The translations under genes were made by a program, and so were the position numbers. The notes beneath the pieces were generated by a model. That model saw only the letters and a program-made list of their open reading frames with translations. It was not told the DNA's origin and searched no databases. From Clostridiales bacterium (GTDB lineage Bacteria; Bacillota; Clostridia; Lachnospirales; Lachnospiraceae), in the NCBI GenBank assembly GCA_021203365.1, contig JAJQBI010000012.1, positions 1 to 64,000 of the forward strand: a stretch of DNA of 64,000 nucleotides, given 5' to 3'. Shown here one piece after another: positions 1 through 7,069 of this stretch. Position 1 is the stretch's first letter. Each line of letters opens with the position of its first letter.

Positions 1-339
1 CGCCACACACCTTGTTAAACATATACTTTTTTCTTTTTCATATTGCCGGTAACCTTACAGTTCCCGGCCTCCTTCTTTTATAAGAGACAGTAAATTCAAT
101 CGTATCCATGTAAATTTTTCAAGATAGGAACAAAAAACATCTGATTGGAGTTTTATTTCTGTTTCGTTATTTATTTGTATTAGTAATGAAATTCCTATAG
201 ATTATTTTGTCAGTCTATGATAATATTCTTTGCAGGAGCTACCAGGATGGTAGGCGGTTAGCCCTCATTTCCGAGGGGACTGTGACCCTCGTTTACATAG
301 AAGCCCAAAAGGGAATCCGATGGAAGGAGGGCTAAGCCA

Positions 340-438
340 ATGAGTATCGCAGACTTAATTGCAGTGCTGAGCTTCGGCATCGGCTGCTTTTGTGCCGGAT
401 ATACATTCGGCAAGGATAATCATAAAACACAGAAATAA
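340..438 (+). CDS. Small hydrophobic protein, 32 aa (MSIADLIAVLSFGIGCFCAGYTFGKDNHKTQK), candidate type I toxin-like / holin-like peptide
   Basis: ATG at 340 preceded by GGAGG (326-330). One hydrophobic helix plus a charged C-terminal tail. Stop at 436-438 immediately overlaps a strong hairpin. Below the ORF-track length cutoff. Confidence 0.6.
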   Translation: MSIADLIAVLSFGIGCFCAGYTFGKDNHKTQK

Positions 439-472
439 CCGCCCCAGTCCTGACAAAGCCGAGCGGTTATTT
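433..472. terminator. Bidirectional intrinsic terminator-like hairpin (AAATAACCGC...GCGGTTATTT)
   Basis: 10-bp perfect inverted repeat 433-442 / 463-472 with T-rich flanks on both strands. Confidence 0.65.
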
Positions 473-552
473 CTAATAACAACTTAACTTAGGGCTAACC
501 GTCTATCGGTAGCTCCCAGAGGCACCTGTTACCAGCAGGTGTCTCTCTTTCT
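433..552 (-). ncRNA. Predicted convergent antisense RNA (~120 nt) facing the 32-aa ORF
   Basis: Minus-strand promoter TTGAAT-17 nt-TATAGT (582-587 / 559-564), 5' stem-loop 518-546, ends at the hairpin 433-472. Prediction only. Confidence 0.4.
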
Positions 553-558
553 ATCCAT

Positions 559-587
559 ACTATACCATAATGCACCGCTTGATTCAA
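559..587 (-). promoter_or_regulatory. Sigma70-like promoter TTGAAT-N17-TATAGT driving the antisense RNA
   Basis: Read on the minus strand: -35 at 587-582, 17-nt spacer, -10 at 564-559. Confidence 0.45.
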
Positions 588-713
588 GCATTTTTCAAGC
601 TCTCCCCTATCTGAAGCAAAGACAGGCGGCTGTTTTCAAATCGCTGCGCATCGATTCCCAAATATTGTGATGAGAATTCCGGGAATACGAAGCACGGAGG
701 AATTCTAAAAAAT

Positions 714-748: not shown

Positions 749-822
749 TGGAAGCAACGGGGCTCGAACCCGTGGCCTCTCGCGTGTGAGGCGAACGCTC
801 ATCCCAGCTGAGCTATGCTTCC
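749..822 (-). tRNA. tRNA-Val (anticodon CAC)
   Basis: Cloverleaf read on minus: GGAAGCA-TA-GCTC..GAGC-TTCGC CTCACAC GCGAG..ACGGGTTCGAGCCCCGT-TGCTTCC-A. 3' CCA not encoded. Confidence 0.93.
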
Positions 823-826
823 AAAG

Positions 827-1171
827 TGGACCTGGCGGGAATTGAACCCGCGTCCGAAAGCCTATTCATTGTGGCATCTCCCATCGCAGTCGCTGTTTTA
901 ACATTCCCTCCACGGTACGCCCACCGACAGGCTTATCGCTTCAGTAGCTTCATAATACATCTGACGGGGCAAAGCTTACCCGCCAAGGTTTCTCACATCC
1001 TTAACGCCAGGTTCCCAACGTGTGAGTGCATCGGGGCTGACGGCAGCCATCAGGCTGCGAACGCGTACTGTTCGTCTGCGTTTATATTTAATTTCCAGGT
1101 TGATACGCAGTCCCGGAGTCTGCGGATGGCTTCCACAACTTCAAAACCCCCGTCGAAACCAGTACAAGCCC
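827..1171 (-). ncRNA. ssrA: tmRNA (transfer-messenger RNA), predicted tag peptide ADEQYAFAA (codons within 1079-1050), after the non-encoded alanine
   Basis: 5' GGGCTTG pairs with 3' CAGGTCC; conserved GGTTTCGACGGGG near the 5' end; GGGTTCAATTCCCGCC T-arm; TAAAC-GCA resume context followed by GACGAACAGTACGCGTTCGCAGCCTGA. Confidence 0.93.
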
Positions 1172-1350: not shown

Positions 1351-3282
1351 TCAATATGCCCTGGACTCTCTTCTTCCTTCCATTACATCCTCACAGGCCT
1401 TTCGCACGGATTCCTGTATGGACGTTGTGGCAATTCCCACATTCCACCAGGACTCATAACCGTCCGTCATTGTCTTGGGAATTACCTTCAGGTCAAAGAG
1501 GCATGCGATCTCCTGCTTCTTCGCATCCTCCAGGGCCGCCTCGAGCTCTGCGATGGTTTTGCAGGTGTATGACTTCAGGCCGTATCCTTCCGCCACCTTG
1601 GCGTAATCCACCGGAATCAGATCTCCGCAGGGTTTTTTGCCGTTGGTGTACCGGAACTCTGTGGCAAGACTGCCGATTCCGTTGTTCATTTCCAGATTGT
1701 TGATGCAGCCAAATCCGCAGTTGTCAAATACCAGGATATTCACCTTTTTTCTCTCCTGCATGATCGTCATGATCTCACTGTGAAGCATCTGGAAGCTGGA
1801 ATCGCCCACCACACAGTACACCTCGTTGTCCGGCTCCGCAAGCTTTACGCCCAGGGTAGCCGCCACCTCATAGCCCATGCAGGAATATCCATATTCCGCG
1901 TGATAACCGCCTCTCTTGTCTGTCGTCCACATTCTCTGCATACAGCTGGGAAGGGAACCGCCTGCGGTGATGATGGTGGCGTCCTCATCGATCACTCTGC
2001 GGATGGCAGCCAGAGCCGCGGTCTGCGCGATCTTTCCATCTGTCATCTTCACAAACTCCGGAATGGTTCTGGGATCTCTCGCTTTGATGTTGGGTTCAAA
2101 ATCGTCTCCCGTGTACTCAATGCCCGCAAGGCGCTCCATTTCCTGATCCCATACTTTCTTCGCCTTTTCAATCTCATCTGTGTAGGTGGATACATATTTT
2201 CTCTCACGGAGCTTTTGGGCCAGCGCTTCGATGGTCACCTTCGCATCTCCGACGGCCTTTACCGCATCCATCTTATACGCATGGAATCTACAGTTATTCA
2301 CAGAGACAAACTGTACGTCCTCATTTTTAAACAGACGCTTGGAGCTGGTGGTAAAATCTGACATTCTCGATCCGATGGCGATTACCACATCCGCGTCTCT
2401 GGCAATAATATTGGAGGCGTAGGTTCCCGTCACACCAATGCCGCCCAGGCAATAGGGATGGCTGGATTTGCAAGCGCTCTTTCCCGCCTGGCTCTCCCCA
2501 AAGGGGATTCTGAACTCTTCGCAGAATTTCTCCACGGTTTCTCCGGCATCTGAATAACGGACTCCGCCGCCTACGATCACGAGAGGCTTCTTTGCCCCCG
2601 CGATGATCTCCGCCAGGTCTTCCAATTCCTCCTCCACAGCCACAGGCCTTGTGATTCTGTGCACGCGCTTCTTAAAGAAATATTCCGGGAAATCAAAGGA
2701 CTCTCCCTCCACATCCTGACACAGCGCGATGCAGCAGGCTCCGGTCTCCGCCGGGTCTGTCAGAACGCGCATCGCATTGATCAGGGCTGTCATAATCATC
2801 TCCGGACGGGTAATACGGTCCCAGTATTTGCAGACCGGTTTAAACGCATCGTTTGTGGAAATCGCAAGGCTGCTGCTCTGCTCCAGCTGCTGCAGAACCG
2901 GATCCGGCTGTCTCGACGCAAAGGTATCCGCCGGGAATACAAGAAGCGGAATATTGTTTACTGTCGCCGTAGCGCAGGCAGTCACCATATTGGCGGCGCC
3001 CGGCCCTATGGACGAAGCGCAGGGAATAATTCTTTTCCGGTTGCTCTGCTTCGCAAAGGCGATGGCCGCATGGCACATTCCCTGCTCGTTCCGCCCCTGG
3101 AACACCTTCAGACTGCCCGGATCCGAATCCAGAGCCTCCCCCAGGCCCACGGCGATTCCATGTCCGAAAATTGTGAAAAATCCTTCCACAAATTTTGTCT
3201 CTTCCCCATCCATGGACACATACTGCTGGTCAAGAAACTTCACAATCGCCTGTGCCACTGTCAATCTCACTGTTTTTGCCAT
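1351..3282 (-). CDS. iolD: 3D-(3,5/4)-trihydroxycyclohexane-1,2-dione acylhydrolase
   Basis: ThDP-dependent enzyme with IolD-type sequence (HAAIAFAKQSNRKRIIPCASSIGPGAANMVTACATATVNNIPLLVFPADTFASRQPDPVLQQLEQ). Start set at the RBS-spaced ATG. Confidence 0.93.
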   Translation of the reverse strand: MAKTVRLTVAQAIVKFLDQQYVSMDGEETKFVEGFFTIFGHGIAVGLGEALDSDPGSLKVFQGRNEQGMCHAAIAFAKQSNRKRIIPCASSIGPGAANMVTACATATVNNIPLLVFPADTFASRQPDPVLQQLEQSSSLAISTNDAFKPVCKYWDRITRPEMIMTALINAMRVLTDPAETGACCIALCQDVEGESFDFPEYFFKKRVHRITRPVAVEEELEDLAEIIAGAKKPLVIVGGGVRYSDAGETVEKFCEEFRIPFGESQAGKSACKSSHPYCLGGIGVTGTYASNIIARDADVVIAIGSRMSDFTTSSKRLFKNEDVQFVSVNNCRFHAYKMDAVKAVGDAKVTIEALAQKLRERKYVSTYTDEIEKAKKVWDQEMERLAGIEYTGDDFEPNIKARDPRTIPEFVKMTDGKIAQTAALAAIRRVIDEDATIITAGGSLPSCMQRMWTTDKRGGYHAEYGYSCMGYEVAATLGVKLAEPDNEVYCVVGDSSFQMLHSEIMTIMQERKKVNILVFDNCGFGCINNLEMNNGIGSLATEFRYTNGKKPCGDLIPVDYAKVAEGYGLKSYTCKTIAELEAALEDAKKQEIACLFDLKVIPKTMTDGYESWWNVGIATTSIQESVRKACEDVMEGRRESRAY

Positions 3283-3307
3283 GTTTTTCACTCCTCTTCT
3301 CTGATTT

Positions 3308-4342
3308 TTACGCCCGGGCGATCATTTCGCCGTATTTTTCTTTTTCTTCCTTAATAAAAGCAAACACCTCATCCGGTCCCGGCAGGGAATCCGAACAGTT
3401 GTTGCTGCGCACCATCATGGACGCTTCGGCGGAGCCAAACTCCAGACAGTCGATGATCTCCCACCCCTGATACAGGCCATAGAGGAAGCCGGAACCATAT
3501 CCGTCCCCGCCGCCGAATCCCTTCCTGGCTTCCACCGGGAAAGGACGGATGCTGAATTTCTGCCCGTCACATGTATAAGCCGTGGATCCCTTCATTCCGT
3601 GTTTAATGACCACAATTTTCCCATGATAGCTCTGCCACAGCGCCGCGCTCTCCTCATCGGTCATTCCCGGTCGGATCAGCTTTTCCGTAAGGTCAAATTC
3701 CTCCCTGGATCCCATGATGATGTCCGCCTCTTTTGCCACGGCGGAATAATAGATGGATATCTCATCGCTGTTTTTCCAGTTGTACTCTCTGTAATCAATG
3801 TCAAAAATAATCCTTGTGTCACTCTTCTTCGCCAGCAGAACCGCTTTGAGAGCCGCCTCCCTGGAGGGGCTTTCCGCCAGAGCCGTGCCGGAGATCAGAA
3901 TCGCCTTTGCGCTCCTGATATAGTCCTCATCCACATCGTCCACACTAAGCTGAAGATCCGCGATGCAGTTGCGGTACATCAGAATACTGCTCTCCTTTGG
4001 AGAAAGCATTTCCGTAAAGGTCAGTCCCAGCTTCTCCCCATTGGTGCACCGGGTAATATGGCTGGTGTCAATTCCCTGTTCCGCAAAATACTCCGTCACA
4101 AAGTCGCCGAACTGATCGTCTGAAACTTTGCCGATAAATCCGGCCTTCATCCCGTGATGCGTAATGCCCACCGCAATATTGGCCGGGGAACCGCCCACAA
4201 ACTTTTCAAACATATGCACATTTTTCAGCGGTTTGAATTCTTCCTTCACCTGATCGTTGTACGCGGGGTTGAAATCAATTGCAACTCTTCCGAGAAGCAC
4301 CAGATCCAGAGGCCTTGTCTCATCAAACTCTACATATCCCAT
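3308..4342 (-). CDS. iolC: 5-dehydro-2-deoxygluconokinase (PfkB family)
   Basis: GRVAIDFNP / GGSPANIAVG / GGGDGYGSGF PfkB motifs; adjacent to iolD. Confidence 0.92.
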   Translation of the reverse strand: MGYVEFDETRPLDLVLLGRVAIDFNPAYNDQVKEEFKPLKNVHMFEKFVGGSPANIAVGITHHGMKAGFIGKVSDDQFGDFVTEYFAEQGIDTSHITRCTNGEKLGLTFTEMLSPKESSILMYRNCIADLQLSVDDVDEDYIRSAKAILISGTALAESPSREAALKAVLLAKKSDTRIIFDIDYREYNWKNSDEISIYYSAVAKEADIIMGSREEFDLTEKLIRPGMTDEESAALWQSYHGKIVVIKHGMKGSTAYTCDGQKFSIRPFPVEARKGFGGGDGYGSGFLYGLYQGWEIIDCLEFGSAEASMMVRSNNCSDSLPGPDEVFAFIKEEKEKYGEMIARA

Positions 4343-4428
4343 TCGTTCTCCTCCATCTCTTCATGTTGCGCCGTTTCTGCCGGGATTCACGGCTGCCCCC
4401 TGAAAGAAACGTGAATCCCGGCCTGTTT

Positions 4429-5451
4429 TTAAATATTATATTTTGTCTTTATATTAATGTCCGTATAGCGATACTCATCCTGAATCTCTTTTTTCTTCAG
4501 AATCAGATCCGCCAGAATATGCAGCGGTTCATATCCCTGCACATATTCATCCTGATCGATCAGAAAATCCGCCATGTCTCTCTCCAGCAGGTCCGTATTC
4601 TCCGGGGTCAGGTCATAGATGATGGTGTAAGGCCTCCGCTCCAGCTCCAGGCTCCGGAAGGCCCGCTCAATGCCCTTCTGTCCCGCGGATACCAGAAACA
4701 GTCCGTTTATGCCCGGAATGCTCTGCATCGCGCTTTTTATGATTTTCTCCACTTCCCGGTCGTCATCAAAGCTGCACTGCACACCTGCCGCCTCCAGGCC
4801 CGGAAAGGACTTTTTCAGTTCCCCCACAAACCCATCCACACGGCTGTTATTTACATTGCTGCTGAAAAATCCTGTAATAACCATGATTTTTCCCACACCG
4901 CCGGTGAGCATGCCCATCAGGCCCGCCGCCGTCTGTCCGCTTCTTTTATTGTCCATCCCCACAAAGCAGTTCCTCTTTGTGCCAACAATATCTGAATTAA
5001 AGGTCACAACCGGTATTTTCTTTTCCTCGGTCAGTTCATTTATTTTTTCCCGGACGCCCTCACAGTCGACCGGCATAAGCGCAAGGCCCTGGATCCCCTC
5101 CGCGGTCAGCTCGTCGATCATCGCCAGCTGTTCCTGCTCATCCACGGAAACACTTTCCCGCAAAAGGACCTGGATTCCCATCTCCGCCAGCTCAGCCATC
5201 GCTTTGTGAATTCCCCGGTTCACCTCCAGCATAAAGGAGGATTTCGACAGCTGAGTCACTATGCCCAGCCGCAGATTTTCCTTTTTTGTCTCATACTTCC
5301 TGTGTTTCGGGACATAGCCCATCTCATCCGCCAGCCGCAGCACCCGGTCTGCCACCTCCGGATTCACCCGTCCCCGCTGATTTAAAGCTCTGTCCACAGT
5401 TCCCCTGGAGACCCCGGCGCGCTCTGCAATGTCCTGTATCGTAACTGCCAT
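4429..5451 (-). CDS. LacI-family transcriptional regulator embedded in the iol cluster
   Basis: N-terminal HTH TIQDIAERAGVSRGTVDRALNQRGRVNPEVADRVLRLADEMGY and a periplasmic-binding-protein-like effector domain. Confidence 0.92.
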   Translation of the reverse strand: MAVTIQDIAERAGVSRGTVDRALNQRGRVNPEVADRVLRLADEMGYVPKHRKYETKKENLRLGIVTQLSKSSFMLEVNRGIHKAMAELAEMGIQVLLRESVSVDEQEQLAMIDELTAEGIQGLALMPVDCEGVREKINELTEEKKIPVVTFNSDIVGTKRNCFVGMDNKRSGQTAAGLMGMLTGGVGKIMVITGFFSSNVNNSRVDGFVGELKKSFPGLEAAGVQCSFDDDREVEKIIKSAMQSIPGINGLFLVSAGQKGIERAFRSLELERRPYTIIYDLTPENTDLLERDMADFLIDQDEYVQGYEPLHILADLILKKKEIQDEYRYTDINIKTKYNI

Positions 5452-5503
5452 TTCTCTTTCCCACTCTTTCCATCACTTTTACAGCTATGATAGCACAATG
5501 CAG

Positions 5504-5532
5504 AAAAGCACGCAATATGCCTGCGTGCTTTT
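5504..5532. promoter_or_regulatory. Perfect palindrome AAAAGCACGCA-N7-TGCGTGCTTTT between iolA and lacI (operator and/or attenuator)
   Basis: 11-bp perfect arms 5504-5514 / 5522-5532; the same AAAGCACGCA core recurs upstream of iolG. Confidence 0.5.
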
Positions 5533-5548
5533 TTACCTGTCAAAAGCC

Positions 5549-7069
5549 TCAGATTCTCTCCACGGTGCCTTCCCATGTATCCATGGCCTTTTTCGCAGAC
5601 TCCTCATCATACCAGTGCTTTGTGACTGTTTTCGCTCTTGTATAGAAGCGAACGCCGTCTATGCCGAGAACATGCTGATCGCCATAGAAAGAGTCCTTGT
5701 TTCCGGAGAACGGGAAGTACGCGGTCGGTACCGGAATACCCACGTTGATTCCCACCATGCCGCCGTCCGTCAGCATCTCAAACTGACGCGCGTAATATCC
5801 GCTCTGTGTAAAAATAACAGAACCGTTGGCAAACGGGTTGGCATTCATAAGGGCAAGGCCTTCCTCAAAGTTCTTCACTCTCTTGATCACAGTCACCGGT
5901 CCGAAGATCTCACGGTCTCCAACCGTCATCCCCGGAGTTACATGATCCAGGATGGTCGGCCCCACGAAAAATCCATCTTCATATCCGGGAACAACCACAT
6001 CGCGGCCGTCAAGTACAACCTCCGCGCCCTCGTCAATTCCCTTCTGAATCCAGTTGCATATGGATTCCTTATGCTTCGCGCTCACAACCGGGCCCAGCTT
6101 CGTCTCCGGATCATAGGCACATCCCACCTTCATGGCCATGGCTTTCTTTTTCAGAAGAGCCACAAACTGATCGGCAATACTCTCCTGTACCACAACAACC
6201 GGGAGAGCCATGCAGCGCATTCCCGCACATCCATAGGTGGAGTTGATAATGGCATTTGTAGTGCTTTCCAGATCGCAGTCCTCCAGCACCAGCGCATGGT
6301 TCTTCGCCTCACACTGAGCCTGCACTCTCTTTCCATGAGCGGCCGCAACCGAATAAATATGCTTTCCAACCGCTGTCGTTCCCACGAAGGTTACCGCCTT
6401 GATCCTCGGATCCGTCAGGAAAATCTCAGACTCATTTCTGGAGCAGGTAACCAGGTTCACAACTCCTTTGGGGAATCCTCCCTCTTCATAGAACAGTTCC
6501 ATAATACGCATGGAGGTCAGCGGAGTCTGGGAAGCCGCTTTCAGGACAACCGTATTTCCGGTGGCGATCGCCAGGGGCACCATCCATCCCCAGGGAATCA
6601 TCGCCGGGAAATTAAAGGGAACGATCCCTGCGACAACGCCCAGCGGAACCCGGTAGGAGGCGGTGTCAAACCCTGTGGTAACCTGAAGGGAAGCGCTGCC
6701 CTGGGTAATGTACGGTGCCGAGCATGCAAGCTCTGTGGGCTCAATTGCCTTCAGAACGTCTCCTCTTGCCTCATTCAGTGTCTTTCCGATTTCCTTCGCA
6801 CATATAAGAGCCAGCTCATCCAGATGCTCCGTCAGGATATTGCGCCACTTAAACATCATCTGTGTGCGCTTGGACAGAGACATCTGCGACCACGCCGGGA
6901 ACGCTGCATCCGCCGCAGCAATGGCCTCTTCCACTTCATCTACGGTACAGCAGGGAACCTCAGCCATCACCTTTCCGGTTGAGGAATCCGTAACCTGCAT
7001 CCACTTATCGGTTTTGGACTCCTTCCACTCACCATTCACACAATATTTCTTTCTGATAACCTCGCTCAT
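5549..7069 (-). CDS. iolA: Methylmalonate/malonate semialdehyde dehydrogenase (CoA-acylating)
   Basis: ALDH family with MMSDH-type GCAGMRCMALPVVV active-site region; in iol cluster. Confidence 0.92.
   Translation of the reverse strand: MSEVIRKKYCVNGEWKESKTDKWMQVTDSSTGKVMAEVPCCTVDEVEEAIAAADAAFPAWSQMSLSKRTQMMFKWRNILTEHLDELALICAKEIGKTLNEARGDVLKAIEPTELACSAPYITQGSASLQVTTGFDTASYRVPLGVVAGIVPFNFPAMIPWGWMVPLAIATGNTVVLKAASQTPLTSMRIMELFYEEGGFPKGVVNLVTCSRNESEIFLTDPRIKAVTFVGTTAVGKHIYSVAAAHGKRVQAQCEAKNHALVLEDCDLESTTNAIINSTYGCAGMRCMALPVVVVQESIADQFVALLKKKAMAMKVGCAYDPETKLGPVVSAKHKESICNWIQKGIDEGAEVVLDGRDVVVPGYEDGFFVGPTILDHVTPGMTVGDREIFGPVTVIKRVKNFEEGLALMNANPFANGSVIFTQSGYYARQFEMLTDGGMVGINVGIPVPTAYFPFSGNKDSFYGDQHVLGIDGVRFYTRAKTVTKHWYDEESAKKAMDTWEGTVERI

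What the first reader, a model, noticed from the sequence alone, without database searches (positions are those of the whole stretch)
235..590. Type I toxin-antitoxin-like unit with a symmetric, SD-complementary element
Seen directly: an unlisted 32-aa hydrophobic ORF (340-438), a bidirectional terminator overlapping its stop (433-472), and a convergent minus-strand promoter TTGAAT-N17-TATAGT (587-559). A long inverted repeat (235-265 vs 491-516) gives the ORF mRNA and the predicted ~120-nt antisense RNA nearly the same leader (GGAGCTACC...GGTTAGCCCT). The 3' part of this leader, TTAGCCCT (258-265), is perfectly complementary to AGGGCTAA at 328-335, which overlaps the Shine-Dalgarno. Inference: the SD can be masked in cis by the mRNA leader or in trans by the antisense RNA. 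This differs from Fst/par loci, where direct repeats give complementary RNAs.
Basis: partly seen in the sequence, partly recalled or inferred. Interest (0 to 1): 0.75.

Follow-up and report, generated by a model that had tools for sequence, protein, structure and literature searches.

The report
Gut-bacterial type I toxin–antitoxin RNA family

Summary
The described elements are all present and far from chance. The unit recurs in the own genome, in 24 of 97 near genomes by DNA search, and (antisense RNA model) in 177 of 295 genomes of the order, with a short hydrophobic ORF under purifying selection (median dN/dS 0.14). Two promoters are supported, the antisense one stronger. It is best read as a large type I toxin-antitoxin family, absent from Rfam at gathering score, that works like bsrG/SR4. 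Cis masking of the Shine-Dalgarno (SD) by the leader is supported (own pairing beats swapped, 0/5000). Trans masking of the SD by the antisense RNA is not supported across the family (1491/5000), though possible in this unit. The inverted repeat is better explained as the 5'-3' closing helix of one mRNA that runs through the right arm: leader/antitoxin differences are mostly those that keep G-U pairing with the right arm (209:71; 223:42), cis 5'-3' pairing is unit-specific (-43.3 vs -28.9 swapped, 0/5000), and 62 of 69 units have a T-run or terminator after the right arm. Model: the antitoxin, a perfect match to the mRNA 3' end, displaces the leader, which then clamps the SD. Transcription and toxicity are untested.

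The parts
192..221 (+). weak toxin-mRNA promoter (TTCCTA-N18-TATGAT, 8/12); relatives have TTGCAG-N17-TATAAT here
   Evidence: alignment; promoter counts (34% of units >=10/12 against 4% in shuffles)
235..265 (+). left arm: mRNA 5' end GGAGCTACC ... GGTAGGCGGTTAGCCCT
   Evidence: pairs with 491-516 at p about 0.96-1.0 in the fold of 231-552, except 0.56 at its last base; directional wobble test
239..253 (+). local hairpin CUACC(239-243)/GGUAG(249-253), alternative to the 5'-3' helix
   Evidence: folds (3' end absent or blocked)
258..266 (+). anti-SD strand 'a' (TTAGCCCTC), pairs with 327-335
   Evidence: pairing p 0.98 at 260-266 in the mRNA without its 3' end; own vs swapped
273..290 (+). hairpin GAGGG(273-277)/CCCTC(286-290); 286-290 is a second anti-SD strand 'c', paired with the SD in the full-length fold
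   Evidence: fold; alignment A1
304..313 (+). hairpin CCC/GGG with compensatory changes in relatives
   Evidence: 3 pairs, 6 to 27 sequences changed on both sides
324..330 (+). Shine-Dalgarno AAGGAGG
   Evidence: sequence; conserved in A1
340..438 (+). 32-aa hydrophobic ORF, predicted toxin MSIADLIAVLSFGIGCFCAGYTFGKDNHKTQK
   Evidence: dN/dS 0.14; no Pfam/NCBIfam match
431..474 (-). terminator hairpin of the antisense RNA (AGAAATAACCGC/GCGGTTATTTCT), overlapping the ORF stop
   Evidence: conserved with compensatory changes
491..516 (+). right arm: 3' part of the toxin mRNA, complementary to its 5' end; on the minus strand the 5' hairpin of the antitoxin
518..546 (+). + strand terminator hairpin (13 pairs) followed by CTTTC; probable end of the toxin mRNA
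   Evidence: 62 of 69 units have a T-run or extra hairpin plus T-run after the right arm
425..552 (-). predicted antitoxin RNA of about 120-130 nt
   Evidence: model R1 hit 417-533 E 1.4e-22 (this sequence is in the model); fold z -3.6; ends are inferred
559..587 (-). antitoxin promoter TTGAAT-N17-TATAGT (TTGACA-N17-TAATAT in relatives)
   Evidence: (70% of units >=10/12 against 2% in shuffles)

Best explanation
It is a type I toxin-antitoxin module of the 3'-overlap kind. A weak promoter makes a roughly 320-nt mRNA for a 32-aa membrane peptide; a stronger convergent promoter makes an antisense RNA of about 120-130 nt matching the mRNA's 3' third. The inverted repeat is the mRNA's two ends: the 5' leader (left arm) pairs with the 3' end (right arm). 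The leader has a second possible partner, the Shine-Dalgarno. When the antitoxin takes the mRNA 3' end (perfect Watson-Crick, against a cis helix with wobbles and a 5-nt bulge), the leader is released and clamps the SD with 9-14 pairs instead of the 5 pairs made by the downstream strand 286-290. Translation is thus doubly blocked; if the antitoxin is lost, the weakly masked form, perhaps after trimming, makes toxin. Shown by sequence comparison: conservation, ORF selection, promoters, cis leader-SD pairing, 5'-3' pairing. Inferred: the mRNA 3' end, displacement, activation and toxicity.
For: Recurrence; dN/dS 0.14; promoters. Cis leader:SD own -16.0 vs swapped -14.9, sd 0.22, 0/5000 and -17.6 vs -16.1, 0/5000 in an independent set. 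5':3' helix own -43.3 vs swapped -28.9, sd 0.71, 0/5000; antitoxin-to-leader differences that keep pairing vs break it 223:42 (70 units), 209:71 (53 units), 145:52 without the conserved core; units from outside the order: own -45.4 vs -35.3, 30:15. T-run or terminator after the right arm in 62/69 units. Window energies: cis helix -46.6, antitoxin on the right arm -56.0, leader on SD -22.0, downstream strand on SD -9.7; mean SD openness over 64 units 0.17 full-length, 0.06 with the 3' end blocked. bsrG/SR4 shows the same leader/antitoxin identity, 3 of 3 differences pair-keeping, and SR4 binding lengthens its SD stem from 4 to 8 bp (PMC6562991).
Against: No transcript, RACE or toxicity data. 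The strict terminator scan of two relatives found no + strand terminator, so the mRNA 3' end rests on T-runs, pairing and the 518-546 hairpin. A-poor leaders explain part of the A>G excess (A lost to C/T is 40:21), though not C>U 71:26. Swap tests do not remove relatedness. An 8-nt match of leader GGCGGUUA to UAACCGCC at the ORF end offers a third leader partner. The bsrG leader/SR4 score (34) lies within its shuffle range (max 38). Removing the leader and 3' end in silico does not open the SD much (0.19), so the active form is unknown.
Confidence: 0.66

Rival explanations
1. The antitoxin leader acts in trans directly on the SD: antisense GGTTAGCCCT pairs with AGGGCTAAgCC over the SD.
For: 10 pairs, -16.1 kcal/mol in this unit; antisense 5' part pairs with the SD somewhat better than shuffled sequence.
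Against: No cognate preference (489/5000; 1491/5000); 8 of 9 units with SD GGAGGA have an antisense C there, which cannot pair with A (p = 0.41).
Confidence: 0.12
2. The arms are identical for another reason: terminal inverted repeats of a small mobile element, a shared protein site, or gene conversion between two leaders; the mRNA ends at 431-475.
For: Homology often starts and stops at the arms; units are multicopy and tandem.
Against: Differences are strongly directional (A>G and C>U together), as pairing predicts and identity for other reasons does not; promoters beyond the arms are conserved; no match in phages or plasmids.
Confidence: 0.12
3. The small ORF is a regulatory or signalling membrane peptide rather than a toxin, with the same RNA control.
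For: No toxicity data; the window peptide matches no toxin profile.
Against: The same RNA chassis carries Hol_Tox toxins (L109 27.5 bits; L185 32.4 bits; cut-off 23.3), the family of BsrG (34.5 bits); an orphan antitoxin with a decayed toxin lies in the own genome.
Confidence: 0.1

Closest known systems
bsrG/SR4 (Bacillus subtilis prophage SPbeta; TxpA/BsrG family)
   Same: Small membrane peptide, convergent antisense RNA overlapping the mRNA 3' end, mRNA leader complementary to its own 3' end, SD weakly masked alone and more strongly when the antitoxin binds (PMC6562991).
   Different: BsrG is a Hol_Tox protein, the window peptide is not by profile; arms are unrelated in sequence; model R1 does not find the bsrG locus.
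txpA/RatA (Rfam RF01776) and Enterococcus Ref66 (RF02839)
   Same: Antisense RNA at the mRNA 3' end with a terminator hairpin; Ref66 is the best Rfam near-hit (E 7e-4, 28.2 bits).
   Different: Both are far below the gathering score (92 and 49 bits); the conserved GCUACCGAUAGACGGUUAG hairpin is not in either model alignment. RatA acts by RNase III decay only (PMC4147584).
Fst/par (RNA I/RNA II, pAD1)
   Same: Convergent RNAs overlapping at 3' ends; small membrane toxin.
   Different: Direct repeats pair between the two RNAs and block ribosome binding (PMC4147584); here the repeats are inverted.
Clostridioides difficile modules (CD2517.1-RCd8 and others)
   Same: Clostridia, convergent antisense antitoxin, small hydrophobic toxin (PMC6563280).
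   Different: Toxins of 34-59 aa in the review; their RNAs were not compared here.
aapA/IsoA (Helicobacter pylori)
   Same: Short SD-masking hairpins in the toxin mRNA thought to act during transcription (PMC6733600).
   Different: No sequence relation tested; different phylum.

Membership tests
type I toxin-antitoxin | small hydrophobic ORF under coding selection | tested here: met
   102 of 105 units with a short ORF above hydropathy 1.5; dN/dS 0.14
type I toxin-antitoxin | antisense RNA gene with its own promoter and terminator | tested here: met
   promoter; conserved structured RNA and terminator (prediction, not transcription)
type I toxin-antitoxin | toxicity of the peptide and neutralisation by the RNA | not testable with these tools
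   needs expression in a laboratory strain
TxpA/BsrG (Hol_Tox) family | toxin matches PF16935 | tested here: not met
   window ORF: no Pfam family at E <= 10; some other units with the same RNA do match
TxpA/BsrG (Hol_Tox) family | mRNA 5' leader complementary to its own 3' end, antitoxin matching that 3' end | tested here: met
   (mRNA 3' end inferred)
Rfam RatA / Ref66 | score above the gathering threshold | tested here: not met
   20.1 of 49 bits and 28.2 of 92 bits; no Rfam match in nine divergent loci
Fst/par | direct repeats giving complementary 5' regions | tested here: not met
   arms are inverted

The most novel reading that the evidence does not exclude
One regulatory RNA chassis, spread over the order and other classes of the phylum, onto which unrelated small toxins are swapped; its antitoxin acts by strand displacement at the mRNA 3' end, made favourable because the cis helix is kept weaker by conserved G-U pairs and a bulge, and the freed leader locks the Shine-Dalgarno.
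Probability: 0.4. Interest if true: 0.75.

Novelty: new variant of a known kind. Interest (0 to 1): 0.55.

Why it matters
If right, a large share of Lachnospiraceae-type gut bacteria carry one to several copies of an unannotated type I toxin-antitoxin family that ordinary annotation and Rfam miss. It gives hundreds of natural variants of one RNA switch, so the bsrG/SR4-type mechanism, in which an antitoxin acting at the 3' end closes a distant ribosome site, can be tested by covariation and mutation, and it offers a ready search model for other genomes.

Tried and rejected
Trans SD masking by the antisense leader: no cognate preference. Antisense leader as complement of the mRNA leader: weak effect, 33/5000. 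Terminal inverted repeats or gene conversion: contradicted by directional differences. Leader GGCGGUUA: UAACCGCC at the stop codon: 93-99% paired per position in 115 units, own above swapped 3/10000 by pair count but not by energy (1486/5000); kept as an unresolved third pairing. Spread on phages or plasmids: no match by DNA or by two toxin proteins. RatA in control genomes: nothing rang, uninformative; RatA consensus in phages: none. Viral-contig scans failed six times. A made-up terminator query against phages gave only unrelated AT-rich hits. Literature: no paper found in the held library describes this family, which does not exclude papers not held.

Full report
What is there. Missed was a + strand terminator-like hairpin at 518-546, beyond the right arm, with 13 pairs.

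It is not chance. The own genome has three copies by DNA search and six matches to an antisense-RNA model. DNA search finds 24 of 97 near genomes, with many matches running from arm to arm, and the alignment shows conservation of both promoters, arms, leader hairpins, SD, ORF and terminator. The exact right-arm 19-mer occurs in at least 119 GTDB stretches, mostly Lachnospiraceae and also Selenomonadaceae, Mogibacterium and others. In 105 of 149 of the matches held, a left arm and an ORF lie at regular distances. The ORFs are diverse, but nearly all are short and hydrophobic. Within the window's subfamily the median dN/dS is 0.14 over 406 pairs. Model R1 of the antisense RNA hits 177 of 295 genomes and 90 of 129 genera of the order, and 29 of 399 in a phylum-wide sample.

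The toxin. The window peptide matches no Pfam or NCBIfam profile. Other units with the same RNA carry Hol_Tox peptides above the Pfam cut-off (L109; L185), the family of B. subtilis BsrG. So the RNA chassis is conserved while toxins change; toxin exchange on bsrG/SR4 loci has been noted (PMC6562991).

Cis masking. In a fold of 231-478 the SD bases 327-333 pair with 260-266 at probability 0.98, and the leader is more stable than shuffles (z -3.3). Over 90 units the cognate leader-SD duplex is -16.0 against -14.9 for swapped partners (0/5000); over 54 divergent units -17.6 against -16.1 (0/5000).

Trans masking. The antisense leader does not prefer its own SD and its variable base does not follow the SD. 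So the symmetric element needs another explanation.

The inverted repeat as one mRNA's two ends. In divergent units the arms change sequence but stay alike within a unit: leader/antisense identity score 28.0 against 18.9 swapped (0/5000; examples). On the + strand the right arm is followed directly by a T-rich stretch in 50 of 69 units and by an extra hairpin with T-run in 12 more, so the toxin mRNA probably runs through it. The right arm then pairs with the mRNA's own 5' end: in the fold of 231-552 this helix forms at probability about 0.96-1.0 apart from 0.56 at its last base. The key test is direction. If the leader resembles the antitoxin because both pair with the right arm, differences should be those that leave G-U pairs (antitoxin A to leader G, C to U). 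They are: 223 against 42, 209 against 71 in the independent set, and 145 against 52 in units lacking the conserved core. A difference in G+C content would not raise both A>G and C>U. Cognate 5':3' duplexes average -43.3 against -28.9 swapped (0/5000). Twelve units from outside the order give -45.4 against -35.3 and 30:15. The SPbeta bsrG leader shows the same relation to SR4, with 3 of 3 differences pair-keeping, although the alignment score itself is within its shuffle range.

How it probably works. In this window the cis 5'-3' helix is worth -46.6, the antitoxin on the same right arm -56.0, the leader on the SD -22.0 and the downstream strand 286-290 on the SD -9.7 kcal/mol. Full-length mRNA keeps the SD behind the weak strand; when the 3' end is blocked, the leader takes the SD. 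Over 64 units mean SD openness falls from 0.17 to 0.06. This matches bsrG/SR4, where antitoxin binding at the 3' end lengthens the SD stem from 4 to 8 bp (PMC6562991). RNase III decay of the duplex is likely to contribute, as in that family. Displacement and activation are inference; transcripts and toxicity are untested.

Placing it. Type I toxin-antitoxin by anatomy; BsrG-like by RNA architecture; not a member of the Hol_Tox protein family by the window toxin; not Rfam RatA or Ref66; not Fst. I rate it a new variant of a known kind, of interest mainly for its breadth and its testable RNA switch.

Noticed in passing
L237 487-595 (own genome contig C64): An antitoxin copy whose toxin is reduced to a C-terminal remnant (ALINAEK-like), an apparent orphan antitoxin.
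   Followed up: partly
L181 308-2510: Five antitoxin-model matches within 3.2 kb; L206, L200 and L249 also hold three to four each: tandem arrays of units.
   Followed up: partly
L005, L010, L012, L016, L018 and others, leader between the anti-SD strand and the GAGGG hairpin: A recurring insert of about 51 nt (GGTTGCAGAGTGCC...GAAACGGAGACC), itself hairpin-forming, inside the leader of several units.
   Followed up: no
window 279-300: Hairpin loop ACUGUGA and downstream UUACAUAG are strongly conserved in A1 and could form a 5-bp pseudoknot (CUGUG:CAUAG).
   Followed up: no
window 253-260 and 436-443: Leader GGCGGUUA is complementary to UAACCGCC at the ORF end, 93-99% paired per position over 115 units; a possible third leader partner.
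   Followed up: partly
L046, L074 (MAGs named Aeriscardovia and Bacteroides): The right-arm 19-mer in records labelled as other phyla; probably binning errors, possibly transfer.
   Followed up: no
window 749-1171: tRNA (749-822) and tmRNA (824-1171) on the minus strand next to the unit.
   Followed up: no
window 1351-7069: TPP enzyme (Pfam) followed by reading frames that look like a sugar kinase, a LacI-type regulator and an aldehyde dehydrogenase; perhaps an inositol-type catabolic cluster (only the first was tested).
   Followed up: no
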